Shown: positions 14,431 to 29,379, numbered from the stretch's first letter. The stretch: 64,000 nucleotides of DNA from Natronosalvus caseinilyticus (GCF_017357105.1 NZ_CP071596.1:2170001-2234000), one strand, 5' to 3'. Notes: generated by a model not told the origin, from the letters alone. Numbers and translations: made by a program.

Positions 14431-14890
14431 TCGAGCGCCCCTCCCTATTCGTCTCGAAACCGTTCTTCCAGTGCGTGTATGTTCGCGTAGCGGCGCCCTC
14501 GAGCCCTCGTCTTCGCACGAGTTGATGGGGGGAGTGAGTGTGAGCAAGTGAGTAAATGAGTGTGAGTGAATGAGTGACTTACCCGAACCTAATCGTTTAG
14601 CCCCATAGTGCATATGGTTCCAGCGGTGACTACCTATCGTGGTGTGCATCCAGCGGATGGACACTACGTGCCTCTGACACTTTCTGGCGACGATTCTCAC
14701 CGAGCGAGAGCGACGTGATCGCGATCCGACAGTGCACTGGTTCCTCGGCCGTTCACTGTCCCTCCTGCACCCGTAGTACACGCTTTCGTATTCTCGTACA
14801 CCCTTACGGTTTTAATTCCCTAATATGGCATTATAATACCCTTAGTCATAATGGGGTACCCTCTTGTGGGTGCGAAAACCTCGGGTGCGT
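14431..14890. other. Intergenic region between proS and gltB with a GTGA-type microsatellite and the gltB promoter
   Basis: No credible gene is seen in these 460 bases. Positions 14532-14577 are a low-complexity run of GAGT/GTGA/ATGA tetranucleotides. The right part (14800-14850) is AT-rich, with TTTTAATTCCCTAATATGG and CATTATAATACCC, plausible TATA elements for gltB. Two copies of ACCCTTA (about 14801 and 14838) and a GGGTACCC palindrome near 14854 flank them and could be regulator sites. Confidence 0.6.
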
Positions 14891-17800
14891 ATGACACAGC
14901 CACACAGTGACTCGTCTCACGGCGAGCGGGGCCTCGCCAGCCCCGAAGACGAACGGTCGAACTGCGGTCTCGGCGTCGTCATGGACCTCGACGGCGGAGC
15001 GAGCCACGACGTCGTCGCCGACGGCCTCGAACTCCTCGTCAACCTCGAGCATCGGGGCACCACCGGCGCCGAAGCGAACACCGGCGACGGCGCGGGGATC
15101 GTGCTCCAGATGCCCGACGCCTTCTTCCGCGACGAACTCGACGTCGACCTGCCGTCGCAGTATGCCGCCGGATCGATCTTCTTCCCACAGGACGACGCCG
15201 CCCGCGAAGCGCTCATCGACCTCGTCGAGGACGCTCTCGCCGAGTACGGACTCGAAATCCTTGCCTGGCGGGACGTGCCGACGAACAACGACGAGCTGGG
15301 CGCGACGGCCCTCGCGTCCGAACCCGACGTCTGGCAGGTGTTCGTCTCGTCGACGGACGAACTGGCCGAGGACGACTTCGACCGCCGTCTCTACGTCGCT
15401 CGCCGCGCGCTCGAGAACGCGGTCGAGGACGCCGACGTCGACGGTTCCGGTCGATTCTACGTCTGCTCGCTGGACTCGAAGACGCTCGTCTACAAGGGCC
15501 TGCTCAAGGGCAAGCAGGTCGCCAGCTACTACCCCGACCTCGTTGACGAGCGCCTCGAGTCGACGTTCGTGATGGTCCACGAGCGCTTCTCGACGAACAC
15601 CCTCGGGGCGTGGCACCTCGCTCACCCCTATCGCAACGTCGTCCACAACGGCGAGTTCAACACCATCCAGGGCAACGTCAACTGGATGCGCGCCCGCGAG
15701 ACGGACCTCGAGAGCGAGGTCATAACCGATCTGGAGGCCGTCAAACCCGTCATCAACGACCCCAACCAGTCCGACACCGCGAGCGTCGACAACGCCGTGG
15801 AACTGCTCGTGCAGGACGGGCGCGACCTTCCCCACGCTCTCCGTATGCTCGTTCCCGAGGCCTGGCGCGGTGACGACCAGATGGACCAGGCGCGAAAGGA
15901 CTGGTACGACTTCCACGCCTCGCTCGTCGAGCCGTGGGACGGCCCAGCCCTCGTCGCGGCGACCGACGGTGAACGCGTCGGCGCCGTTCTCGACCGGAAC
16001 GGTCTGCGTCCCTGTCGGTACGACGTGACGACCGACAACCGCCTGATCGCCGCCAGCGAGGCCGGCGCGCTCGAGACGCCCTCCGAAAAGATCGCCGAGC
16101 GCGGGCGGCTCCAGCCCGGTCAACTGTTCCTGGCCGACCCGAACGAGGGCCGGGTCATTCCGGACGAGGAGGTCTTCGACGGCCTCGTCGACGACCGCTA
16201 CGGCGAGTGGCTCGCCCGCGAACAGGTTCACGTCGAGGACCTCCTCGAGACGGCCGACCCCGAACCGCGCCAGGCCGTCGACAGACTGCGCCCCCACCAG
16301 GCCGCGTTCGGCTACACCCACGACGAACTCGAGAACCTGATCGAGCCGATGATGCAGAAGGGGAAAGACCCGATCGGCTCGATGGGCGACGACACGCCGC
16401 TGTCGGTGCTCACCGAGTTCAACCGGCCGCTGTTCTCGTACTTCAAACAGCTGTTCGCCCAGGTCACGAACCCGCCGCTCGACTACATCCGCGAGGAACA
16501 GGTCACTTCGCTCGAGTCCCGGCTGGGATTTCAGCGCAACCTGCTCGCCGAGTCGCCAGAACACGCCCGCCAGCTCGTCCTCGACTCGCCTGTCCTCACC
16601 GACGCCGAACTCGAGGCGATTCGCGACTGCCAGACGAACGATATTACGACGGGGACGGTCGACGTCACCTACGATTGCAAAGAAGCTGCCGACCAGCCCG
16701 ACGGCGAGGCGCTCGAGGCCGCCATCGAGCGCGTTCGCGAGGACGCCGTCGCGACGATCGAGGCCGGCAACGACGTGGTGATCCTCTCCGACCGCGGCGT
16801 CGACGACCGCGTCGCGATCCCGAGCCTGCTCGTGATGGGCGCCGTTCACCACCACCTCGTGCGAAACGGCCTGCGCAACCATGCGGGGATCGTCCTCGAG
16901 TCGGCCGACCCGCGAACCGTTCACCACGTCGCGACCCTGATCGGCTACGGCGCCGACGCGATCAATCCCTACCTCGCCTACCAGACCATCGCGGACCTCA
17001 CGGCCGGCTCCGACGGCGCGGACACCAGCGTGGCCATCGACGCCTACGTCGGCGCGCTCGAGGACGGCCTCCTGAAGATCATGGCCAAGATGGGCATCTC
17101 GACGGTCGAGAGCTACCAGGGCGCCCAGATCTTCGAGGCCGTCGGCCTCGACTCGAGCCTGATCGAGGAGTACTTCGAGGGGACCGAGAACCGCACCGAG
17201 GGGATCGGCCTCGCCGAAATCGAAGCGGACCTCCTCGAGCGCCACGCGACCGCCTTCGACGACAAGGCGACCCTCGACCGCCAGGGCGAGTTCGAGCACC
17301 GCTCGGGCGGCATCCACCACCAGTGGAATCCCCAGTCCGTGGGAACGCTCCAGCAGGCCGTTCGCTCCGGCGACTACGAGCGCTACCGGGAGTACGCCGA
17401 GGGGATCAACGACCAGTCCGCAGACCTGCGCACTCTCCGCGGACTCCTCGAGTTCGACTCGGACCGCGAGTCCATCCCGCTCGAGGACGTCGAGCCCGTC
17501 GCCGACATCGTCGGGCGGTTCTCGACGGCCGCGATGAGCCTCGGGAGCCTTTCGCCGGAGGCCCACGAGAACAACTCCGTCGCGATGAACCGTATCGGCG
17601 GGAAGAGTAACTCCGGCGAGGGCGGCGAACCGCCCGAACGCTTCGGCACCGAGCGCGAGTGTACCGTCAAGCAGGTCGCCTCGGGTCGCTTCGGCGTCAC
17701 CAGCACGTACCTCTCGAGCGCGGACGAACTCCAGATCAAGATGGCCCAGGGGAGCAAGCCCGGCGAGGGCGGCCACCTGCCCGGCCAGAAGGTCAACGAG

Positions 17801-19441
17801 ATGATAGCTCGCGTGCGCAAGTCGACGCCCGGCGTCGGCCTCATCTCGCCGCCGCCGCTGCACGACATCTACTCGATCGAGGATCTGAAACAGCTGATCT
17901 TCGACCTGAAAGCGGCCAATGAGGACGCCGACATCAACGTCAAACTCGTCTCAGAAGCGGGTATCGGCACCATCGCTGCGGGCGTCGCGAAGGCCAACGC
18001 CGACGTGGTCCACATCTCGGGCCACTCCGGCGGCACCGGCGCCTCGCCCCGGACCTCGATCAAGCACGCCGGCCTCCCGTGGGAACTCGGCCTGGCCGAG
18101 GCGAACCAGATGCTGTGTGCCACCGGCCTCCGGGATCGCATCCGCGTCTCGGCAGACGGCGGCATGAAGACCGGACGTGACGTAGCCGTCGCCGCCCTGC
18201 TCGGCGCCGAGGAGTACGTCTTCGGCACCGCCTCCCTCGTCGCCGAGGGCTGCGTCATGGCTCGTCAGTGTCACAAGAACACCTGCCCGGTCGGCGTCGC
18301 CACCCAGCGCGAGGACCTCCGCAAGCGCTTCCCCGGGGAACCCGAGCACGTCATCAACTTCATGACGTTCATCGCCCAGGAACTGCGCGAGATCATGGCC
18401 GAACTCGGCTTCGAAACGCTGGACGAGATGATCGGACGCGTCGAGGTCCTCTCCCAGCGCGAGGACGTCGACCACCCGAAGGCCCGAACCGTCGACCTCT
18501 CGGCCGTCCTGGCCGAACCCGAAGGCGACGTCCGGACCAAAACTCGGGAACAGAACCACGGCCTCGAGGATCAGCTCGACCGAACCCTCATCGAGGAGGC
18601 CAGCGCGGCCATCGAGGACCGGACCCCCCAGACCGTCGAAACCGAGATCAGGAACGTCGACCGTGCCGTCGGCACCATGCTCTCGAACCGGGTGTCGAGC
18701 CGCTACGGCGAACCCGGCCTCCCCGAGGATACCCTCACCGTGGACCTCGAGGGCACCGCCGGCCAGAGCTTCGGCGCGTTCCTCGCCCACGGCCTCTCGT
18801 TCCACCTCGAGGGCAGCGCGAACGACTACGTCGGCAAAGGCCTCTCGGGCGGGAAACTCACCGTTCGGACGCCCGAAACGGCCGCCTACGAACCGACCGA
18901 GAGCGTCGCCATCGGCAACGTCGCCCTCTACGGCGCGACCGGCGGCGAACTGTACGTCAACGGCGTCGCCGGCGAGCGCTTCGCGGTTCGCAACTCGGGC
19001 GCCAAGGCCGTCGTCGAGGGCGTCGGCGACCACGGCTGTGAGTACATGACCGGTGGCGTCGTCGCCGTCCTCGGCGAGACCGGAACCAACTTCGCTGCGG
19101 GGATGTCCGGCGGCGTCGCGTACGTCTTCGACCCCGACGCGGCACTCGAGCGCAGGGCCAACACTGGTATGGTCTCGCTCCACGAGGACCTCGACGAGGC
19201 CGACGAGGCCATGCTCGAGCGCCTACTCGAGAACCACGTCGCCTACACCGGTTCCGAGCGCGGGCGGGACCTCCTGGCGAACTGGGAGCGCACCCTCGAG
19301 TCGTTCGTGAAGGTCATGCCCGAGGCCTACCACCAGGCGATCACCGAGGACGGGCGGGACGACGTCCGTGCCGAACTTCCCGAATCACCAGCGGTGGGTT
19401 CCGAACCCGAATCACCGGAGTTCGCCACGAGCGACGATTGA
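14891..19441 (+). CDS. gltB: Glutamate synthase large subunit
   Basis: This protein of about 1516 residues transfers the glutamine amide to 2-oxoglutarate. The N-terminal class II glutamine amidotransferase has its catalytic cysteine in SNCGLGVV (about residue 25 from this start), so a propeptide must be removed to expose it. NLEHRGTTGAE and HERFSTNT follow. The central domain and FMN barrel contain LGSLSPEAH and SGHSGGTGASP. The 3Fe-4S cysteines lie in CVMARQCHKNTCPVG. The GXGXG beta-helix ends the protein. An earlier ATG-like start (14864) exists, but MTQPHSDSS fits better. No gltD is adjacent, so the electron donor, probably ferredoxin, is unresolved. Confidence 0.95.
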   Translation: MTQPHSDSSHGERGLASPEDERSNCGLGVVMDLDGGASHDVVADGLELLVNLEHRGTTGAEANTGDGAGIVLQMPDAFFRDELDVDLPSQYAAGSIFFPQDDAAREALIDLVEDALAEYGLEILAWRDVPTNNDELGATALASEPDVWQVFVSSTDELAEDDFDRRLYVARRALENAVEDADVDGSGRFYVCSLDSKTLVYKGLLKGKQVASYYPDLVDERLESTFVMVHERFSTNTLGAWHLAHPYRNVVHNGEFNTIQGNVNWMRARETDLESEVITDLEAVKPVINDPNQSDTASVDNAVELLVQDGRDLPHALRMLVPEAWRGDDQMDQARKDWYDFHASLVEPWDGPALVAATDGERVGAVLDRNGLRPCRYDVTTDNRLIAASEAGALETPSEKIAERGRLQPGQLFLADPNEGRVIPDEEVFDGLVDDRYGEWLAREQVHVEDLLETADPEPRQAVDRLRPHQAAFGYTHDELENLIEPMMQKGKDPIGSMGDDTPLSVLTEFNRPLFSYFKQLFAQVTNPPLDYIREEQVTSLESRLGFQRNLLAESPEHARQLVLDSPVLTDAELEAIRDCQTNDITTGTVDVTYDCKEAADQPDGEALEAAIERVREDAVATIEAGNDVVILSDRGVDDRVAIPSLLVMGAVHHHLVRNGLRNHAGIVLESADPRTVHHVATLIGYGADAINPYLAYQTIADLTAGSDGADTSVAIDAYVGALEDGLLKIMAKMGISTVESYQGAQIFEAVGLDSSLIEEYFEGTENRTEGIGLAEIEADLLERHATAFDDKATLDRQGEFEHRSGGIHHQWNPQSVGTLQQAVRSGDYERYREYAEGINDQSADLRTLRGLLEFDSDRESIPLEDVEPVADIVGRFSTAAMSLGSLSPEAHENNSVAMNRIGGKSNSGEGGEPPERFGTERECTVKQVASGRFGVTSTYLSSADELQIKMAQGSKPGEGGHLPGQKVNEMIARVRKSTPGVGLISPPPLHDIYSIEDLKQLIFDLKAANEDADINVKLVSEAGIGTIAAGVAKANADVVHISGHSGGTGASPRTSIKHAGLPWELGLAEANQMLCATGLRDRIRVSADGGMKTGRDVAVAALLGAEEYVFGTASLVAEGCVMARQCHKNTCPVGVATQREDLRKRFPGEPEHVINFMTFIAQELREIMAELGFETLDEMIGRVEVLSQREDVDHPKARTVDLSAVLAEPEGDVRTKTREQNHGLEDQLDRTLIEEASAAIEDRTPQTVETEIRNVDRAVGTMLSNRVSSRYGEPGLPEDTLTVDLEGTAGQSFGAFLAHGLSFHLEGSANDYVGKGLSGGKLTVRTPETAAYEPTESVAIGNVALYGATGGELYVNGVAGERFAVRNSGAKAVVEGVGDHGCEYMTGGVVAVLGETGTNFAAGMSGGVAYVFDPDAALERRANTGMVSLHEDLDEADEAMLERLLENHVAYTGSERGRDLLANWERTLESFVKVMPEAYHQAITEDGRDDVRAELPESPAVGSEPESPEFATSDD

Positions 19442-19616: not shown

Positions 19617-22600
19617 CTACGTCTCGTCTAGCGAGGGAGCGCACCCGAGCGACTGATGCGGACAGTTCCGGCAGTGCGATCCCGGCGTCGTCTCGGCGTA
19701 GGTCGGTCTATCCAGCGCCTCGAGTCCCCGTCGAACCGCCTCCCAGTCGGGCGTCGTCGACCGGGAGTGAAGGACGACCCGAGGTCCCTCGACGGGTCCG
19801 ACGTACACGTAGCCGACGGCGTCGACGGGCTCACCGAGCCGGCGTTCACAGGCGCGGGCGTAGAGCGTAAGCTGGAGGGCCGCTTCGGGGTCGATTCGCT
19901 CGCTCGTCGCCTTGTAGTCGAGGACGACGAGCCGTCCGTTGGGTGCCCGTCGGACCGTATCCACGTACCCGACGACCGACCCGTCGACGCCGGGCACGTC
20001 GTCGACCGCAAACGACAGTTCGGCGGCCAGTTCGTCCCACGCGTGAACCGGCGCCTCGAGGTCGGGTTCGCTGGCGTCGAAGTACCGATCGATACACCGG
20101 TGGACTGCCTTCTCGTGTCCTCGTTGTCCGCGAGCCGTGAGCCGTCTGGTGGCCGCCTGACGCCACTCCTCGGGGCTCGAGTACTCCCGGTAGAACGCTT
20201 CCTCGGCCACGGCGTGAAAGACCGTGCCGACGAGTCGCGGGTTCGACTCGGGGCCCGATCGACCGTCGCCCGGGGTCGAGTCAATCTCCTGTCGCCCATC
20301 GTCACCCGGGACTGGATCGTCGGGCGCCCCCACGACGTACTCGAGGTAGTGCCTTCGCGGACACTGGTCGTGGGTCGCCAGCGCACTGTAACTGTGCTCG
20401 AGTGCTTCGGGGAACCGTTCGCGTCCCGAATTCGAGAACGCGTCCGTGGCGAATCGCGACGCCGCTATATCCAGCGCTCCGACCCGTCGCCCCGCCGGCA
20501 CGTCGAGTTCGGGGACCGACGGGGCAGCGTCCGCAGCCGGTAACAGCGTTCGGTTCCGAAGCTGTCGCCCGAGCCGGTGGACGACGTCGAGGGCCTCGTC
20601 CGTCTCGAGCATCCGGCGGCCGTCGCTACCGAGGTAATCCACTGCGCCGGTGGTGTGCGTCGACGGTTCGGCGAGCGAGTCGGTGACGTCGACGACCGTT
20701 TCGGGGTACGTTTCATGCACCCGGTCGAACGCCGTCACCAGTTCCGACCAGAGGTTCATCCGCTCGCCGGTAACCGACCACTCGATCGCAGAGGGGAGAC
20801 ACGCGTCGGCCGCGGAGGCGGCGAGGTCGCCGCCCCCGCCCTCGTAGTCGTAGTTCGAGCCGAAGACGAGCAGGTGGTTTTCCGCCCGGGTGAGCGCGAC
20901 GTGGAGAACGCGCCAGGATTCGGCCGTCGGCTCCGCGGCGAGATTCGCACACAGCGGCGAGTCGACGGCCGGGTCGAGCGTCGCGGCGAGCAGGCGATAC
21001 CGGGCCCCGTAGGCGTAGTCTCGCCGAACGCACCACTCCTCGTCCGAGAGGTACGGCGCGAGGACCGTGTCGAACTCGAGGCCCTTGGCTTGGTGTACCG
21101 TCATGACGTCGACGGCGTCCGCGGACGTGGTTCCCTGCTGGCGGTCGCCCGAGCCGCCCGCGAGCACCGCCTCGAGCGCGTCGACGAACCGGGTCGAGAG
21201 CGACTCGAGAACGTCGGTGCCGGTCCTGGCGTCGACGAACCGTTCGATCCGCTCGAACGTCTGGCTGTCGTCGGGACCCAGAAACCACTCGAGGTTCGTC
21301 CGCTCCCGGAACCGTCGGAGAAACGGCGCTATCGGGGAGGCATCCTTCGCCGTCGCGAGCGCCTCGAGATCGGCACGCGCCCGCTCGAGTCGATCCGGTT
21401 CGTCGAAGGGTTCGGCCTCGAGGTCGGCTTCGAACAGCGCGTCGTACAGCCGACGGTTGCGGCGGTGGAGACGGGAGATATCGGCTTCACACACTCGATA
21501 CCGCGCGAGAAGCACTCGGCGAAGGTGCGTGTCGGCGTCGTGATCGACCAGCACCCGGAGGTACGAGAGGACCGTCTGGGCCCCCTCCGACACGGACCCT
21601 GTCGCCGAGCCCGATCGCTCGCAGGGAATCTGGCGTTGCTCGAGTTCTACAGCGATATTGCGCGCCTGTGCGTTCGTCCGGACGATGACCGCGATGTCTT
21701 CGAGCGTTCGCTCCGGGACGGATCCACAGTCGCCGTTCAGGAGTCGTGAAATCGCCGTCCCGACCTGCTCGGGTATCGTCGACTCGAGTTCGTCGCTCTC
21801 GACTTTCAGCACCCGGTGGGGCGGGCTCGCCTCGTCGTACGACCCCCGCGTCCGCCCGTGTTCCCGGAGCGTCTTCGAGGGCTGGGTGCCGTACGAGCAG
21901 TGGTTCGTCAGATCCAGAATCTCCTGTTTCGACCGAAAGTTCAACTCGAGTTCGACCGACTCGTGGTCGTCGTAGTTCGCACCGAGGCGGTCGAGGCCCC
22001 TGGGGTCGGTCCCGCGCCAGCCGTAGATCGCCTGGTCCGTGTCCCCGATGGCGAGGAGATCGGGTCGATCCGGGCCGTGCGTCAGTTCGGTGACGAGTTT
22101 CCACTGGGTCGCGTCGGTGTCCTGGAACTCGTCGCAGTAGACGTGGCTCCACCGCTGGGCGATTTCCTCGGTGACAGCCTCGTCTTCGAGCAGGCGCGTC
22201 GCCGTCCGAACGAGTTCGTCGAAGTCGACCGCGCCGTCGGTCTCGAGCCTCGTCCGATAGTCGGCGTAGATCTCGGCGTAGTGGCCGGCCTGTCGGAGCA
22301 CGGCCACGTAGTGCTCGAGTCGGCCGAACGGCGTCTGTTCGATCGTCTTCGCCCCGTCCCGCCAGAGTTCGTTGCCGAAGAGGACAGGTGGCAGGTGCTT
22401 CGTCGACGGGTCGTCGAGCGACATCGCTTCTCGCGTTCTCGTCACGCACGCCTGAAGCGTGCGGAGGTAGGCGTCGACCTCTCGCACCACCGGATCGTCG
22501 CGAAACGCCGCTGGCCCTTCGGCGATTTTCTCTCGACAAAACGTCAACAGTGTGCCGTACTCGACGAGGGCCTCGCGAATTTTTGTGATGTGTTCGTCCC

Positions 22601-23249
22601 GGTTGAAGTACCGAATCGCTTCGTTGTCGAACGACAGCGATTCCGTCGCCTCGCCGCGAAGCCACAGGAGCAGTTCCTCGAGGAGGTCGAGCGTCCGCTC
22701 GTCGGGCAGGGCGTCGATCAGAGCATCCGGATCGATCTCCTCACGACTCATCACCGAGACGAAGTGGTCGACCGATCCGGCAAGCGTCGACGGCGTGGCC
22801 GATTTCGTCGGCGCCACGTCGACGGCCGCGAAGTCGTACTCGTACTCGGCGAGGAGCCGGTTGAGGAGCCGCCGTCGCTTCCGCTCGGTGACGACTTCGA
22901 ACGACGGGGAGATCCCGAGATAGTAGGCGTACTCTCGAACCAGCCGGTAGCAAAACGAGTGATACGTGTGGACCTCGATCGCCGCAGCGACGGACGGCTC
23001 GAGTCGCTCGGCGATGGACGCTCGAATGCTCGCGGCCGCCTCGTTCGCAAACGTCACGACGAGCACGTCTGAGGGGTCGACGTCGCCGTTCTCGAGCGCC
23101 CGTTCGATCCGTGCCAGCATCGTGGTCGTCTTCCCGGTTCCGGCGCCAGCGTCGACGGACGTGCACGCGGCCTCACTCGCGATGACGGCGGGTTGGTTCC
23201 CTTTCGGGGCTAGGCCCGGCGTCGACCTCGAGAGCCGATGGTCATCCAT
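19617..23249 (-). CDS. AddA/UvrD-like helicase with C-terminal Fe-S PD-(D/E)XK nuclease
   Basis: This is a protein of about 1210 residues. The SF1A helicase motifs are complete: Walker A DAGAGTGKTTT, DEFQDTD, GDTDQAIYGWRG, LNFRSK, MTVHQAKGLEFD and VALTRAENH. The C-terminal third is a RecB-family nuclease with GTVFHAVAEEAF, GYVDTV, VVLDYKAT and LQLTLYA, so the catalytic His, Asp, Asp-x-Lys and Gln appear intact. DQCPRRHYLEYV before it and CRNCPHQSLGC at the end supply four cysteines spaced like the Fe-S staple of AddB/Cas4 nucleases. It is last in the three-gene operon and its start overlaps the preceding gene. Expected role: DNA end resection or degradation. Confidence 0.88.
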   Translation of the reverse strand: MDDHRLSRSTPGLAPKGNQPAVIASEAACTSVDAGAGTGKTTTMLARIERALENGDVDPSDVLVVTFANEAAASIRASIAERLEPSVAAAIEVHTYHSFCYRLVREYAYYLGISPSFEVVTERKRRRLLNRLLAEYEYDFAAVDVAPTKSATPSTLAGSVDHFVSVMSREEIDPDALIDALPDERTLDLLEELLLWLRGEATESLSFDNEAIRYFNRDEHITKIREALVEYGTLLTFCREKIAEGPAAFRDDPVVREVDAYLRTLQACVTRTREAMSLDDPSTKHLPPVLFGNELWRDGAKTIEQTPFGRLEHYVAVLRQAGHYAEIYADYRTRLETDGAVDFDELVRTATRLLEDEAVTEEIAQRWSHVYCDEFQDTDATQWKLVTELTHGPDRPDLLAIGDTDQAIYGWRGTDPRGLDRLGANYDDHESVELELNFRSKQEILDLTNHCSYGTQPSKTLREHGRTRGSYDEASPPHRVLKVESDELESTIPEQVGTAISRLLNGDCGSVPERTLEDIAVIVRTNAQARNIAVELEQRQIPCERSGSATGSVSEGAQTVLSYLRVLVDHDADTHLRRVLLARYRVCEADISRLHRRNRRLYDALFEADLEAEPFDEPDRLERARADLEALATAKDASPIAPFLRRFRERTNLEWFLGPDDSQTFERIERFVDARTGTDVLESLSTRFVDALEAVLAGGSGDRQQGTTSADAVDVMTVHQAKGLEFDTVLAPYLSDEEWCVRRDYAYGARYRLLAATLDPAVDSPLCANLAAEPTAESWRVLHVALTRAENHLLVFGSNYDYEGGGGDLAASAADACLPSAIEWSVTGERMNLWSELVTAFDRVHETYPETVVDVTDSLAEPSTHTTGAVDYLGSDGRRMLETDEALDVVHRLGRQLRNRTLLPAADAAPSVPELDVPAGRRVGALDIAASRFATDAFSNSGRERFPEALEHSYSALATHDQCPRRHYLEYVVGAPDDPVPGDDGRQEIDSTPGDGRSGPESNPRLVGTVFHAVAEEAFYREYSSPEEWRQAATRRLTARGQRGHEKAVHRCIDRYFDASEPDLEAPVHAWDELAAELSFAVDDVPGVDGSVVGYVDTVRRAPNGRLVVLDYKATSERIDPEAALQLTLYARACERRLGEPVDAVGYVYVGPVEGPRVVLHSRSTTPDWEAVRRGLEALDRPTYAETTPGSHCRNCPHQSLGCAPSLDET

Positions 23250-24324
23250 CGAAGGCCACCTCGCTCGAGAGGTACTTCGTACAGCAGACGGCGTACGGAC
23301 ACGTCGGGCAGACGTCACGCTTGATCCGGTCCCAGCGGGACTCGAACGCTTCCTCGTCGACGCCGGCGATGGCGGCGGTTGCCACCTGTCGCAACCGATC
23401 GTCGACCGTCTGATTTCGGTGTTCGTGTGTCATTCCGAACGTGTGATGGTCCAGGTAGGGTTCGGTGAGGTCCACCGGCTCGACGCTCGTTTCGACGCGC
23501 TCGCGAAGCGGGTTGACGGTCAGCCGATTCCGGTCGAGGACCGGGACCTGGACGTACCGGCAGGTGCGAGCGTCCTCGAGGTCCAGGCGGTCACGAAGCG
23601 TCCGTAATCCGTCGAGAGCGGCAGCCGTTTCGAGCAGGGTGGCGACCAGTCCGGAGGCGAATTCGGCCCGGTCCGGATCGAAGTGTCCGGCGAACCGATC
23701 GGCGACGTCGCCGTCCCACGCGGATCGATAGCGAAGTATCCTCAGGTGAGCGGCGGTCGGGACGAACCGAACCCCAACGAAGGACGACCCCTCGAGGACG
23801 GCGTAATCGATCGGCACGTCGATCTGAAGAGGGGAGGCTTCGTCGTCATCAGCCGTCGTTCGAGGTGCCGACACCGTCGATCGAAGCGGCAGGTCCGGAC
23901 CGACGAGTTCGCCGTCGACGCCGCTCGCCCTGGTGGCGTACAGACACTCGGCGTGGTCGGCACCGATGACCTCGACGTACGCTCGGATCGCCGCCTCGAG
24001 CACTCGACGCTCGTGTCGTCGCTGGGCGCGTGAGTGGACCCCCTCGCCGTAGTCCGCCCAGCGGTCGGCGAACCGGTCCAGGGAACGCGTCTCGAGGGTG
24101 TCGACGTCCCCCGCACGAAGGGCCTCACAGATGGCCGTTCGGAGTAACTCGAGTCGGGCTACCTGCGGCTCGTCGTCGCCCGTCTGCAGGCCGTACTCGT
24201 GGGCGTATCGGTACCGTTGCGGACACCGGAGGTGGGTTCGAACGCCGTCGATCGAGATCGATTGGGTCTCGGCGCGCGATGGCAGGGGCGTCTTCGCGTC
24301 GGCCTCGGTGAAGTTTCCCGTCAT
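23242..24324 (-). CDS. Small PD-(D/E)XK-fold protein with Fe-S cysteines (split AddB C-terminal part?)
   Basis: This 360-residue protein has the cysteine pattern of AddB/Cas4 nucleases: Cys34 in THLRCPQRYRYAHEYG and Cys339, Cys342 and Cys347/348 in CPTCPYAVCC. The middle contains IDVPIDYAVLEGSSFVGVRFVPT, where the Asp and E-x-K of an active nuclease would sit. I cannot find the catalytic Lys, so it may be inactive. Its ATG overlaps the stop of the AddB-like gene (ATGA) and its end overlaps the AddA-like start. I infer that it corresponds to the nuclease domain of AddB, carried as a separate chain. Confidence 0.65.
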   Translation of the reverse strand: MTGNFTEADAKTPLPSRAETQSISIDGVRTHLRCPQRYRYAHEYGLQTGDDEPQVARLELLRTAICEALRAGDVDTLETRSLDRFADRWADYGEGVHSRAQRRHERRVLEAAIRAYVEVIGADHAECLYATRASGVDGELVGPDLPLRSTVSAPRTTADDDEASPLQIDVPIDYAVLEGSSFVGVRFVPTAAHLRILRYRSAWDGDVADRFAGHFDPDRAEFASGLVATLLETAAALDGLRTLRDRLDLEDARTCRYVQVPVLDRNRLTVNPLRERVETSVEPVDLTEPYLDHHTFGMTHEHRNQTVDDRLRQVATAAIAGVDEEAFESRWDRIKRDVCPTCPYAVCCTKYLSSEVAFDG

Positions 24325-26525
24325 CGGTTCACCTCGCCCGCTGCGAACTCGAACTGCGTGTAGACGGCGTCCCGGATCGTCTCGTCGACGTCTTCGTGCT
24401 CCAGGGCGAGGGCGAGCTCCTGGATTCGCTCCGCCGTCGCATCGAGGTCGACCGGTTCGCCCATCGATGCACGGCCCAGGAGTGTCTCGAGGCCGGCCCA
24501 GGGCACCTCGAGAGCGGCCTCGAGGGTTCGTTGCCGTCCGTAGCCGACGTGGTCTCGGCGTTTCACGTCGACAGGCTCGAGGTCGATCCCTGGCGTGGAC
24601 GCGAGTTCCCGAACGAATCGGGACTCGTCGTGGGTCCGCCGGAGGCCCTCGGTTTCGCGCTCGTACGAACAGCAGTAGAGCCGGGTCCGGGTTGCCCGAG
24701 AACCGAGGGCGAGCCGTCGACGTGCCCGCTCGGCGTGATACGTCTCGAAGCGATCGGCGACGGCCGACCCGTCCGTGACCGGGGCGAACGTCTCCTCGAG
24801 CGTCGATGCGGAGGGGTCGGTCACGGCGGGATAAGATGGCATCGAGCGCAGCCACGCCGTCGGAAACAGCGGCGTGAGAAACTGCGTCCCGGGATAGGTG
24901 TCGTCGATCAGATCTAGCAGGAACACGACTTCCCGCGAGTCGTACGCCAGTTCGTCGATCGGACAGACGGTCACCCCACCGCCCGGCGCTCGCGTCTCGA
25001 TGGCGTGGACGTGCGGGGCGTCGTACTCGATCGTTCGCTGGAGCATTCGTCGCAGCCCCTGCCAGTCGGGGGCGACGAGGTCCGTTCGCTCGACGAATCG
25101 GGCGATCTCGAGGACGCGACGGATACTCTGGAACTGTTCGCGGGCGTCGATCCACGGTTCGTCGCGGGCGATGCGCGCCTTCATATTCGTTCGCTGGATC
25201 CACGACTCGAGTGCGGTCCTCACCGGCTGCCCGTGGGCGGCTTCGACGTCTCGCGGAGAAAATCCCTCGACTCGGGCCTCGAGTCGGGTGATGACGACTT
25301 CGTCTATCTCGGCCGGATCGCTACCCTGCTCGAGCGTACAGTGCGCTTCGATGACGGCGTAGAGTTCGCTGACGGCGGGGTCGTCCGCCAGAGAGGGCGT
25401 TCCGATCGTAGCCGTGGGAACGCCCCCGTCGCGAAGGAGCCGTCGCGTCCGGGGAACGCGTTCCGCTTGCGGGACGGCGACCGCGAACTCGTCGAACGAC
25501 CAGTCGTGTCGGTCGTGGAGCGACTGGATTTCGCTGGCGACCCACCGCATCTGCGCTCGAGCGGTTTCCGTTCGGAGTCGGTACGCTCGAGCGTTCGTGT
25601 GCTCATTTTCGTTCACATCGGCATACAGGTCGTGATCGTTCCTGCCACCCGTTCCAGTCGCCAGCGCTCGAGCGATCGCGTCGTGGGCTGGCTTCGACTC
25701 GGGTTGTCGCGTCGGCGGCCGGACCTCGAGACCGTCCGCGATCGATTCGAGCGATCCGGGTTCGACTCGCGTCCGCTCGACGCTCGCGTGTCGCTGGCCG
25801 ATGCAGACGAGTTCGGCGTCCCCAGTCAGCGCCGCGAGATAGCGCCTGTCGAGGCGGCGAAACTCCTCGAACTGCACGGCGAGAACGGCGTCGAACGAGT
25901 CCGTGATCCGCTCGCGGAGGCCGTCAGCGTCGCCCTCGAGCAGGTCGACCACTCGCGGGACCACGTCAGCCCGTTCGACGAAGCCTCGAGAGTCGAGTTC
26001 GTCGTGGAACCGGTCGTTCATCGCGTAGAGGAAGGCGAGACAGGGGTGGATGGCGCCCCCGTCTCGATCCCCTGTAGCGTCGACCCGTTGGCGGGTCGCC
26101 TCGAGCAACAGTCGTCCGACGTCGCGGGCGAAACTGTCGTGCTCGCTCGCGCGTTCGAGGTACGGCGGGACGTCGAGACTCGCACCGGCGACGACCAGCG
26201 AGATGAGTTCGATCCGCTCCTCGTACTCGAGGCGCTCGAGCATCGGGTCGTACGTCTCGAGAACCTTCGAGGCGTGCTCGGGGAGCGATTCGACTCGCGG
26301 ACCGCTGGCGTTTTGGGATACGTTTGGTCTGTCCGTCGTCTCGAGAAGTCCTCGCTCGAGGCGGTCGAGTCCCGCCGGGTGGCGCTTGAGGACGAAGACG
26401 TTCTTCGATCCGTGGGACTCGACGAGCGCGGCGTACTCGTCGGCGACGCGCTCGAGGAGGTCGTGGCGGGGATACGGGAGGGCGATGAGCGTCCCCTCGA
26501 GTGTCGAGGACTCGGGTGTCGGCAT
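24321..26525 (-). CDS. AddB-like inactive helicase subunit
   Basis: This 734-residue protein has the look of the helicase-fold half of AddB/RecC. It begins GTLIALPYPRHDLLERVADEYAALV, where a Walker A would be expected but none is present. Other segments are SDPAEIDEVVITRLEARVEGFS, VTVCPIDELAYDSREVVFLLDLIDDTYPG and RLYCCSYERETEG, the last matching the position of motif VI. It is first in an operon with two more genes, each overlapping the next. No nuclease domain follows within the chain; it appears to be the next gene. The assignment rests on architecture and context, because sequence similarity in this family is weak. Confidence 0.6.
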   Translation of the reverse strand: MPTPESSTLEGTLIALPYPRHDLLERVADEYAALVESHGSKNVFVLKRHPAGLDRLERGLLETTDRPNVSQNASGPRVESLPEHASKVLETYDPMLERLEYEERIELISLVVAGASLDVPPYLERASEHDSFARDVGRLLLEATRQRVDATGDRDGGAIHPCLAFLYAMNDRFHDELDSRGFVERADVVPRVVDLLEGDADGLRERITDSFDAVLAVQFEEFRRLDRRYLAALTGDAELVCIGQRHASVERTRVEPGSLESIADGLEVRPPTRQPESKPAHDAIARALATGTGGRNDHDLYADVNENEHTNARAYRLRTETARAQMRWVASEIQSLHDRHDWSFDEFAVAVPQAERVPRTRRLLRDGGVPTATIGTPSLADDPAVSELYAVIEAHCTLEQGSDPAEIDEVVITRLEARVEGFSPRDVEAAHGQPVRTALESWIQRTNMKARIARDEPWIDAREQFQSIRRVLEIARFVERTDLVAPDWQGLRRMLQRTIEYDAPHVHAIETRAPGGGVTVCPIDELAYDSREVVFLLDLIDDTYPGTQFLTPLFPTAWLRSMPSYPAVTDPSASTLEETFAPVTDGSAVADRFETYHAERARRRLALGSRATRTRLYCCSYERETEGLRRTHDESRFVRELASTPGIDLEPVDVKRRDHVGYGRQRTLEAALEVPWAGLETLLGRASMGEPVDLDATAERIQELALALEHEDVDETIRDAVYTQFEFAAGEVNR

Positions 26526-27054: not shown

Positions 27055-27245
27055 CGTATTGGAACGGAGGACCGCGAGCGGGTTAGTTCTCGAGGGTACG
27101 TTCACCACGCCTGATGTGCGACAGGGGACGTCACTGGGGTTGACACAACGGTGGCGGAGGGATGGGAAGGGGCTGCTCTCGAGCGTGCCGGGGTGTCATC
27201 TCGTGGCGTGAGAATATTTATAGCCGGACTCCAATACCACAACGT

Positions 27246-27644
27246 ATGGACGACATTTTCGTTGCCAGGTTGATGAGTACGGATCTCGTAACGGTCGCAC
27301 CCGACACCCTCGTCGAGGACGCCGGCCAGACGATGCTCGAGAACGGCATCAGCTCGCTCGTCGTCGTCGACGACGACGGGCGCCTCGAGGGGATCCTGAC
27401 GACGACGGACTTCGTCACCATCGTCGCCGAGAGTTTCCCAAAAGCGGAGACGATCGTCGAGCGCTACATGACGACCAGCGTCGTGACCGTCTCGCCCCAA
27501 CAACCGATCACCGAGGTGGCGAACGTGATGCTCGAACATGGGGTCCACCACCTGCCGGTCGTCGACGAGGCCGAGGGCGTCGTCGGCATCGTCACGACGA
27601 CCGACCTGGCGGGGTACCTGACGACGATGCGAGCGTCGGTGTAG
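27246..27644 (+). CDS. Two-CBS-domain protein
   Basis: This 132-residue protein consists of two CBS domains, about residues 5-60 (LMSTDLVTVAPDTLVEDA, GRLEGILTTTDFV) and 68-127 (YMTTSVVTVSPQQPITEV, GVVGIVTTTDLAGYL). One pair forms a Bateman module that binds adenine nucleotides or related ligands. No effector domain is fused. The ATG at 27246 is about 20 bases after AATATTTATAG (27211-27222), a strong TATA-like box, so the message is probably leaderless. The partner regulated is unknown. Confidence 0.9.
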   Translation: MDDIFVARLMSTDLVTVAPDTLVEDAGQTMLENGISSLVVVDDDGRLEGILTTTDFVTIVAESFPKAETIVERYMTTSVVTVSPQQPITEVANVMLEHGVHHLPVVDEAEGVVGIVTTTDLAGYLTTMRASV

Positions 27645-28302: not shown

Positions 28303-29379
28303 TCACCGCCGCTCGAGGCGCACATCCAGGCAGACGTTGAGTTCGTGAGGCGCGTAGGATCGAACGACGCGCCGGGTCTCGACGGTTACCTCGTAATCGG
28401 GTTCGGCGGCCTCGCGGATCGCTCGCTCTCCCGGTCCGAAGGGGTCGTCCTCGTGCTGGATGTCGTAGAGGTGGAGCACGCAGTCGTCGCCCGCGACCGT
28501 CACCGCGAACTCGAGGAATGCGTCCGCGCTGTGGGGGAGGTTCATCACAATTCGGTCGGCCCAGCCCTCGTAGTCGGGAGCGACCTCACGGACGTCCGCG
28601 GCGATTGCCGTCACCCGATCCGCGACGCCGTTTCGGTCGGCGTTTGCCCGGAGGTACTCGATCGCGACGTCGTTGACGTCGACGCCGACACACTCGGCAC
28701 CACGTCTGGCGAATGGAATCACGAACGGGCCGACGCCGGCGAACATGTCGAAGACGTGCTCGCCCTCGCTCGCCTGCTCGACGACCCGGTGGCGCTCGGT
28801 GGCGAGACGCGGCGAGAAGTACACCGAGGCGAGGTCGAGTGCGAACTCACAGCCGTACTCCCGGTGAACGACGGTCGTCCCCTCACCGGCGACCACGTCC
28901 CAGTCGCGCACGCGGGCCTCGCCCTTGATCTTCGAAGCCTTGTTCAGCACCGTCTCGAGCGGCAGGTCGGACGCGACGATCGCGTCGGCGATCTCCCGCG
29001 CCCGTTCGGGGTCGTCCTCCTCGAGGAGCGCGGTATCGCCCAGTCGTTCGTAGGAGGGTTCGAAGCCGAGGAGATCCGCGGGCATCGTCTGTGTATCGCG
29101 TGCGGGGACGTCGTGGTTGACGAGCGCGTAGTCTACCTCGAGATCCTCGAGATCCTCAAGATCCGAGAGCAGAGCGTCTACCGGGCGTCCGCTTTCGCCG
29201 TCCGTTTCGCCCTCGTCGTCCGTTTCGCTCGAGTACCCACCCTGGACCGCGACGGGAACGTAGAGCCAGCCGTCCTCGACGGTAATCTCGAACTCGTCGG
29301 CGATCAGGTCCGCGTCGGCGAGCCGACTCCGAACGGTCTCGCCGTGCTCGGGACGAACGCGGACACACGGCACGTCCAT
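28303..29379 (-). CDS. trm5: tRNA (guanine-37-N1)-methyltransferase
   Basis: This 358-residue archaeal Trm5 makes m1G37 using S-adenosylmethionine. The Rossmann domain has FDMFAGVGPFVIPFARRG for SAM binding and GVDVNDVAIEYLRANA. MNLPHSADAFLEFA is the NLP motif of the active site. An N-terminal D1-like region (residues 1-115) contains an acidic linker rich in Glu/Asp, and a middle domain includes LNKASKIKGEARVRDWDVV. It is divergent from the Rieske gene with 67 bases between starts. In tRNA-Phe its product is the substrate of TYW1, encoded 2.3 kb away. Confidence 0.95.
   Translation of the reverse strand: MDVPCVRVRPEHGETVRSRLADADLIADEFEITVEDGWLYVPVAVQGGYSSETDDEGETDGESGRPVDALLSDLEDLEDLEVDYALVNHDVPARDTQTMPADLLGFEPSYERLGDTALLEEDDPERAREIADAIVASDLPLETVLNKASKIKGEARVRDWDVVAGEGTTVVHREYGCEFALDLASVYFSPRLATERHRVVEQASEGEHVFDMFAGVGPFVIPFARRGAECVGVDVNDVAIEYLRANADRNGVADRVTAIAADVREVAPDYEGWADRIVMNLPHSADAFLEFAVTVAGDDCVLHLYDIQHEDDPFGPGERAIREAAEPDYEVTVETRRVVRSYAPHELNVCLDVRLERR

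What the first reader, a model, noticed from the sequence alone, without database searches (positions are those of the whole stretch)
19617..26525. Three-gene archaeal AddAB-like complex with AddB split into two chains
Three overlapping minus-strand genes encode, in order, a 734-residue AddB-like protein with no Walker A, a 360-residue protein with the Fe-S cysteine pattern of the AddB/Cas4 nuclease domain, and a 1210-residue AddA-like helicase-nuclease. In bacterial AddB the first two parts are one chain. ATGA overlap and shared order suggest an obligate complex for double-strand-break end processing or for destroying foreign DNA. Archaea mostly use HerA-NurA with Mre11-Rad50, so such a complex would be notable.
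Basis: partly seen in the sequence, partly recalled or inferred. Interest (0 to 1): 0.75.

Follow-up and report, generated by a model that had tools for sequence, protein, structure and literature searches.

The report
Split AddAB-like DNA-end machine in haloarchaea
Salt-loving archaea carry a three-gene relative of the bacterial AddAB/RecBCD machines that chew broken DNA ends; one subunit is split in two, its second nuclease is disabled in this lineage, and mobile relatives of the genes sit in an operon with the Argonaute defence protein.

Summary
The three genes are real: B (734 aa), M (360 aa) and A (1210 aa), overlapping by 4 and 8 nt. The order and overlaps recur in all 58 other haloarchaeal loci read (A off the contig in one), down to about 30% identity. 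B has an inactivated UvrD/AddB fold: its profile's best PDB hit is B. subtilis AddB, and it has no N-terminal Walker A. M has the AddB/Cas4 nuclease fold. Two-gene operons elsewhere in the phylum have a one-chain AddB whose N part matches B and, in three of five, whose C part matches M, so 'AddB split into two chains' is supported. (1) In the window's clade M has lost its catalytic residues (32/32 loci) but keeps four cysteines and is under purifying selection; a second clade keeps them all (27/27). The window complex is predicted to have one motor and one working nuclease, with M as a RecC-like scaffold. (2) In the active clade, 12 loci read Ago-PLD-B-M-A, B starting 5 nt after PLD, extending the known haloarchaeal Ago-PLD (APAP) system. 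The window copy lies among housekeeping genes. Complex formation and activity are inferred, not shown.

The parts
24321..26525 (-). B: 734-aa AddB N-terminal-part homologue; inactivated UvrD-like helicase fold, no Walker A
24321..24324 (-). ATGA overlap of B stop and M start (translational coupling inferred)
   Evidence: overlap of 4 or 8 nt in all 59 loci
23242..24324 (-). M: 360-aa Cas4/AddB-type PD-(D/E)XK fold with four Cys; catalytic residues lost
23761..23772 (-). M residues 185-188 (VRFV) in the place of the I-D-Y-K motif of the active clade
24223..24225 (-). M Cys34, first predicted Fe-S ligand
   Evidence: invariant in 59/59
23281..23310 (-). M Cys339-x2-Cys342-x5-Cys348 predicted Fe-S ligands
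   Evidence: invariant in 59/59
23242..23249 (-). 8-nt overlap ATGGATGA of M stop and A start
19617..23249 (-). A: 1210-aa AddA/RecB-like SF1A helicase with C-terminal nuclease
23127..23153 (-). A Walker A, residues 33-41 (DAGAGTGKT)
19650..20393 (-). A nuclease domain (residues 953-1200) with invariant H1012, D1097, D1111-x-K1113, Q1126xxxY1130 and C963/C1193/C1196/C1203

Best explanation
The three genes encode one ATP-driven DNA-end-processing complex of the AddAB/RecBC type in which the AddB chain is split into B (inactivated helicase scaffold) and M (nuclease-fold domain with a predicted Fe-S cluster). Proposed mechanism: A binds a DNA end, translocates 3' to 5' along one strand with its SF1A motor and pulls the duplex apart against the B/M scaffold. 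The unwound strands are cut by the single working nuclease at the C-terminus of A, while the catalytically dead M holds the architecture and guides the other strand, as the dead nuclease domain of RecC does. The product would be a resected 3' end for RadA, or complete degradation of linear foreign DNA. In the other clade M keeps a complete active site, so both strands could be cut as in bacterial AddAB; that version is mobile and, in a subset, encoded with Argonaute and a PLD-family protein, where it would unwind and degrade ends and could supply single-stranded DNA or guides to Argonaute. Shown by sequence: gene order, overlaps, folds, motif retention and loss, purifying selection, operon structure. 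Inferred: assembly into one complex, polarity, strand assignment, biological role.
For: B profile best PDB hit is AddB 3u44_B (E 6.8e-9). AF2 model of B (pLDDT 82.5) matches UvrD and AddB, with TM-score by query length of 0.56-0.58 for AddB chains against 0.48-0.53 for UvrD/Rep/PcrA. AF2 model of M (pLDDT 87.8) matches a Cas4-family protein and AddB with probability 1.00 (E 6.8e-4 to 3.3e-3). One-chain archaeal AddB proteins (1018-1049 aa) next to AddA: the B profile matches the N part in all five, the M profile the C part in three of five; these carry the D...DYK and QxxxY motifs. A has every helicase and nuclease key residue invariant in 43 sequences. M motif loss: H, D/E, K, Q, Y kept in 27/27 of one clade and lost in 32/32 of the other; motif II Asp and 4 Cys kept in 59/59. 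One change of state on the A tree. dN/dS of M in the lost clade 0.12-0.28. Overlapping B-M-A in 59 loci including the window. No haloarchaeal locus with fused B+M was seen.
Against: No tool here predicts the complex, so B-M-A assembly rests on conserved overlapping gene order. M had no sequence-profile hit to AddB in the PDB, and its Foldseek superpositions are loose (TMq about 0.4, rmsd 8-11). By Foldseek E-value UvrD ranks slightly ahead of AddB for B. A scores far below the AddA and RecB equivalog cut-offs (140.7 against 707.65 and 147.9 against 696.05). Loss of motif residues is read from an alignment of divergent sequences; a displaced alternative active site in M is not excluded. The tree check warns that long branches meet at the root.
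Confidence: 0.72

Rival explanations
1. The window operon is a defence nuclease rather than a repair enzyme: it degrades invading linear or cut DNA, as the mobile clade presumably does with Argonaute and PLD, and has only become fixed on Natrialbaceae-type chromosomes.
For: Mobile clade lies in Ago-PLD-B-M-A operons and AAA/B-M-A/OB-exonuclease/PLD islands and on plasmids. NurA is present beside it in nearly all genomes, so repair may not need it.
Against: Window copy lies between a glutamate synthase gene and CBS-domain and tRNA-methyltransferase genes with no Ago, PLD or other recognised defence gene within the stretch examined. It is present in 45 of 49 sampled genomes of its family, a core-gene pattern, whereas defence genes are usually patchy.
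Confidence: 0.3
2. A works alone as a helicase-nuclease; B and M form a separate DNA-binding pair that merely shares the operon.
For: A has a complete motor and nuclease on one chain; single-chain UvrD-nuclease proteins are known and some occur in related archaea (L123-L126).
Against: Overlapping order kept in 59 loci at down to 30% identity; B and M correspond to the two parts of the AddB that sits next to AddA in related archaea.
Confidence: 0.12
3. M of the window clade is still a nuclease that uses a rearranged active site.
For: The motif II Asp (D173), an invariant His (H124) and the Fe-S cysteines are kept; PD-(D/E)XK enzymes are known to move catalytic residues (general knowledge).
Against: All of motif I His, D/E-x-K and QxxxY are lost together in 32/32, replaced mostly by R, R/V, E and V/A.
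Confidence: 0.12

Closest known systems
Bacterial AddAB (B. subtilis; PDB 3u44, 3u4q, 4ceh-4cej)
   Same: AddA-type SF1A motor with C-terminal nuclease; partner with inactivated helicase fold; nuclease-fold domain with four Cys; single motor; AddB part encoded before AddA
   Different: AddB is two chains; M lacks catalytic residues in the window clade, where AddAB has two working nucleases (PMC4824097); A has its own four-Cys set; below the AddA equivalog cut-offs
RecBCD, especially RecC
   Same: Inactivated nuclease domain in the scaffold partner (RecC, PMC1185551) and one working nuclease in the motor chain
   Different: No RecD-like gene beside it; RecC is one chain; cysteines kept in M; the active sister clade shows that the loss here arose separately
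Mycobacterial AdnAB
   Same: UvrD-like motor chains with nuclease domains; AdnA and AdnB are among the fold matches
   Different: B has no Walker A and no nuclease on its own chain
One-chain AddB + AddA operons of other classes of the phylum (L127-L131)
   Same: Same gene order, homologous parts, overlapping or abutting genes
   Different: AddB not split; AddB nuclease motif intact
APAP (haloarchaeal Ago + PLD-family AgaP; PMC11442185)
   Same: The Ago-PLD pair beside mobile-clade B-M-A looks like this pair; the paper notes a helicase gene near some of the operons
   Different: The paper (as far as searched) does not identify the helicase as part of a three-gene AddAB-like set; the window copy has no Ago or PLD beside it
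UvrD-Cas4 fusion proteins (PMC5704561)
   Same: UvrD helicase plus Cas4-like nuclease linked to defence
   Different: Single chain, no B or M partner

Membership tests
AddAB | AddA: complete SF1A motor plus C-terminal RecB-type nuclease | tested here: met
AddAB | AddB: inactivated UvrD-like helicase fold | tested here: met
AddAB | AddB scaffold and nuclease domain on one chain | tested here: not met
   B and M are separate ORFs in all haloarchaeal loci read
AddAB | four-Cys Fe-S signature flanking the AddB nuclease domain | tested here: met
   59/59; cluster binding itself not tested
AddAB | second working nuclease in AddB | tested here: not met
   window clade lost, mobile clade intact
AddAB | AddA equivalog score (NCBIfam cut-off) | tested here: not met
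   140.7 against 707.65
AddAB | Chi recognition and regulated resection | not testable with these tools
   needs biochemistry
AddAB | stable complex of AddA and AddB | not testable with these tools
   no complex prediction available
RecBCD | dead nuclease domain in the scaffold subunit | tested here: met
RecBCD | RecD motor encoded alongside | tested here: not met
   no such conserved neighbour in the loci; rest of genome not searched
RecBCD | RecB equivalog score | tested here: not met
   147.9 against 696.05
AdnAB | both chains have motor motifs and nuclease | tested here: not met
   B lacks Walker A and nuclease
APAP (Ago-PLD) | Ago and PLD genes adjacent | tested here: not met
   window: none in the flanks; 12 mobile-clade loci: met

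The most novel reading that the evidence does not exclude
Haloarchaea possess a distinct AddAB branch in which AddB split into two genes. In one lineage the free-standing nuclease chain then died catalytically but was kept as a structural Fe-S subunit (a one-motor, one-nuclease machine, an independent parallel to RecC). In the other lineage the intact three-subunit machine became a dedicated partner of Argonaute and a PLD protein in a five-gene defence operon, making the Ago-RecBCD cooperation known from bacteria a genetically encoded unit.
Probability: 0.45. Interest if true: 0.75.

Novelty: new variant of a known kind. Interest (0 to 1): 0.62.

Why it matters
Which enzyme resects double-strand breaks in haloarchaea is unsettled (a review of Haloferax volcanii says HerA-NurA is absent, PMC7776575, while a NurA-family match is found in nearly all genomes here). 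A near-universal AddAB-like operon in one large family is a direct, testable candidate. The loss of one nuclease site in one clade and its retention in the sister clade gives a natural experiment on what the second nuclease of AddAB is for. The Ago-PLD-B-M-A operon links Argonaute genetically to an end-processing helicase-nuclease, where the link to RecBCD in E. coli was a functional one (PMC10164581).

Tried and rejected
Pfam, NCBIfam and PADLOC gave no useful hit for B; M gave a sub-threshold PDDEXK hit only; the M profile against PDB sequences gave only chance hits to Cys-rich proteins. Considered and rejected: sequencing frameshift splitting one AddB gene (split and overlap conserved in 59 loci, no fused version seen in haloarchaea); M as a decaying pseudogene (open in all loci and dN/dS below 0.3); replacement of HerA-NurA (NurA match in 192/194); B as an active helicase (no Walker A). 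Literature searches for an archaeal or haloarchaeal AddAB found no paper describing this operon; only open-licence papers were searchable.

Full report
OBSERVATION. The window holds three overlapping minus-strand genes as described: B 24321-26525 (734 aa), M 23242-24324 (360 aa) and A 19617-23249 (1210 aa), joined by an ATGA overlap and an 8-nt overlap. A has UvrD N and C domains and a C-terminal PD-(D/E)XK domain; M gives a sub-threshold PD-(D/E)XK hit; B has no family hit.

CONSERVATION. B is found in 73 of 194 haloarchaeal genomes: 45 of the 49 sampled from the window's own family, and scattered copies in others. By record titles of its closest named relatives that family is Natrialbaceae (inference). 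In all 59 loci read (window included) B overlaps M by 4 or 8 nt, and M overlaps A by 1-11 nt wherever A is on the contig, down to about 30% identity; one locus runs off its contig before A (L073) and one has a truncated A (L053). No haloarchaeal locus with B and M fused was seen.

WHAT B AND M ARE. A profile of 44 B sequences has as best PDB match B. subtilis AddB (3u44_B, E 6.8e-9), then UvrD1, PcrA and AdnA. The predicted B structure (pLDDT 82.5) matches UvrD and AddB at E about 1e-17 to 1e-20, with the TM-score by query length higher for AddB chains (0.56-0.58) than for UvrD/Rep/PcrA (0.48-0.53). No Walker A is present at the N-terminus in any of 59 sequences. The predicted M structure (pLDDT 87.8) matches a Cas4-family protein and AddB with probability 1.00, though with loose superposition. 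The B profile matches its N-terminal part in all five and the M profile its C-terminal part in three of five, and the Pfam PDDEXK_1 model matches that C part strongly in the two tested. This is the most direct evidence that B plus M equals a split AddB.

M HAS LOST ITS ACTIVE SITE IN THE WINDOW CLADE. Across 59 sequences, 27 keep motif I His, motif II Asp, the D-x-K of motif III and the Q and Y of the QxxxY motif in 27/27. The other 32, window included, keep only the motif II Asp and have lost H, D/E, K, Q and Y in 32/32; the four cysteines are kept in 59/59. In the window, VRFV (residues 185-188) stands where the active clade has IDYK. On a tree of the A proteins the two states separate with one change (quick tree, long-branch warnings). 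M of the lost clade is under purifying selection (dN/dS 0.12-0.28, against 0.09-0.22 for A and B in the same pairs). A keeps its helicase and nuclease key residues, and its own four cysteines, in 43 of 43 sequences. The window complex is thus predicted to have one motor and one nuclease. Bacterial AddAB has one motor and two nucleases (PMC4824097), and the nuclease-like domain of RecC is dead and works as a hoop for single-stranded DNA (PMC1185551). That M does the same is inference.

SURROUNDINGS. The window copy lies between glutamate synthase (14864-19441, +) and a CBS-domain gene (27162-27644, +), with a TRM5/TYW2-type methyltransferase (28303-29379, -) beyond; no Ago or PLD homologue was found in the stretch compared. 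In the mobile clade, by contrast, 12 loci read Ago - PLD - B - M - A, with B starting 5 nt after the PLD stop in all 12; an AAA ATPase gene runs the other way upstream. A second island type has AAA / B-M-A / an OB-plus-exonuclease-like protein / a related PLD-like protein, several on plasmids. Several loci keep 3' remnants of the PLD gene upstream of B (L048, L088, L192). The Ago-PLD pair resembles the published haloarchaeal APAP system, whose authors remark that a helicase gene occurs near some operons (PMC11442185); the passages read do not describe an AddAB-like set. In E. coli, Argonaute cleavage works together with RecBCD (PMC10164581).

A NurA-family match above the curated cut-off occurs in 192 of 194 haloarchaeal genomes, the window's own included, and in the H. 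volcanii control. A review states that HerA and NurA are not present in H. volcanii (PMC7776575). The conflict is noted, not resolved; HerA was not searched.

VERDICT. The reading 'AddAB-like complex with AddB split in two' is well supported as a description of descent and likely working principle. It is not filed as a member of AddAB in the strict sense, because two defining features were tested and not met in the window (AddB on one chain; working second nuclease). It is a new variant of the AddAB/RecBC kind. Function in repair or defence remains inference.

Noticed in passing
L081:6284-11741 (own genome, contig C2 of 230 kb): A second pair of adjacent genes on the smaller replicon: an 860-aa protein with a nuclease-like C part and a 976-aa UvrD helicase-nuclease, looking like a compact two-gene AddB-AddA pair.
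   Followed up: partly
L080:4490-7447 (own chromosome): 985-aa Dna2/Bad-like protein: N-terminal Cas4-type nuclease with four Cys followed by an SF1B-type helicase (read by eye).
   Followed up: no
L050, L051, L087, L094, L096, L098, L188, L190, L194, L198, L201, L202: Five-gene Ago-PLD-B-M-A operons with constant 5-nt PLD-B spacing.
   Followed up: yes
L082-L085, L090, L193, L197: Second island type with an OB-fold plus exonuclease-like protein and a PLD-like protein in place of Ago-PLD; the N part of that protein is weakly like the N part of the Ago (30% over about 130 aa in L190).
   Followed up: partly
L048, L088, L192: 3' remnants of the PLD gene directly upstream of intact B-M-A, suggesting deletion of Ago-PLD.
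   Followed up: no
L053:5704-7326: A gene cut short (540 aa) beside intact B and M.
   Followed up: no
plasmid records H1-H13: 'DNA helicase UvrD' is among the annotated features under most B matches in public plasmid records, although B lacks Walker A: a likely misleading name for B.
   Followed up: partly
search of PF09376 over 194 genomes: NurA-family matches in nearly all haloarchaea, at odds with a review that calls HerA-NurA absent in H. volcanii.
   Followed up: partly
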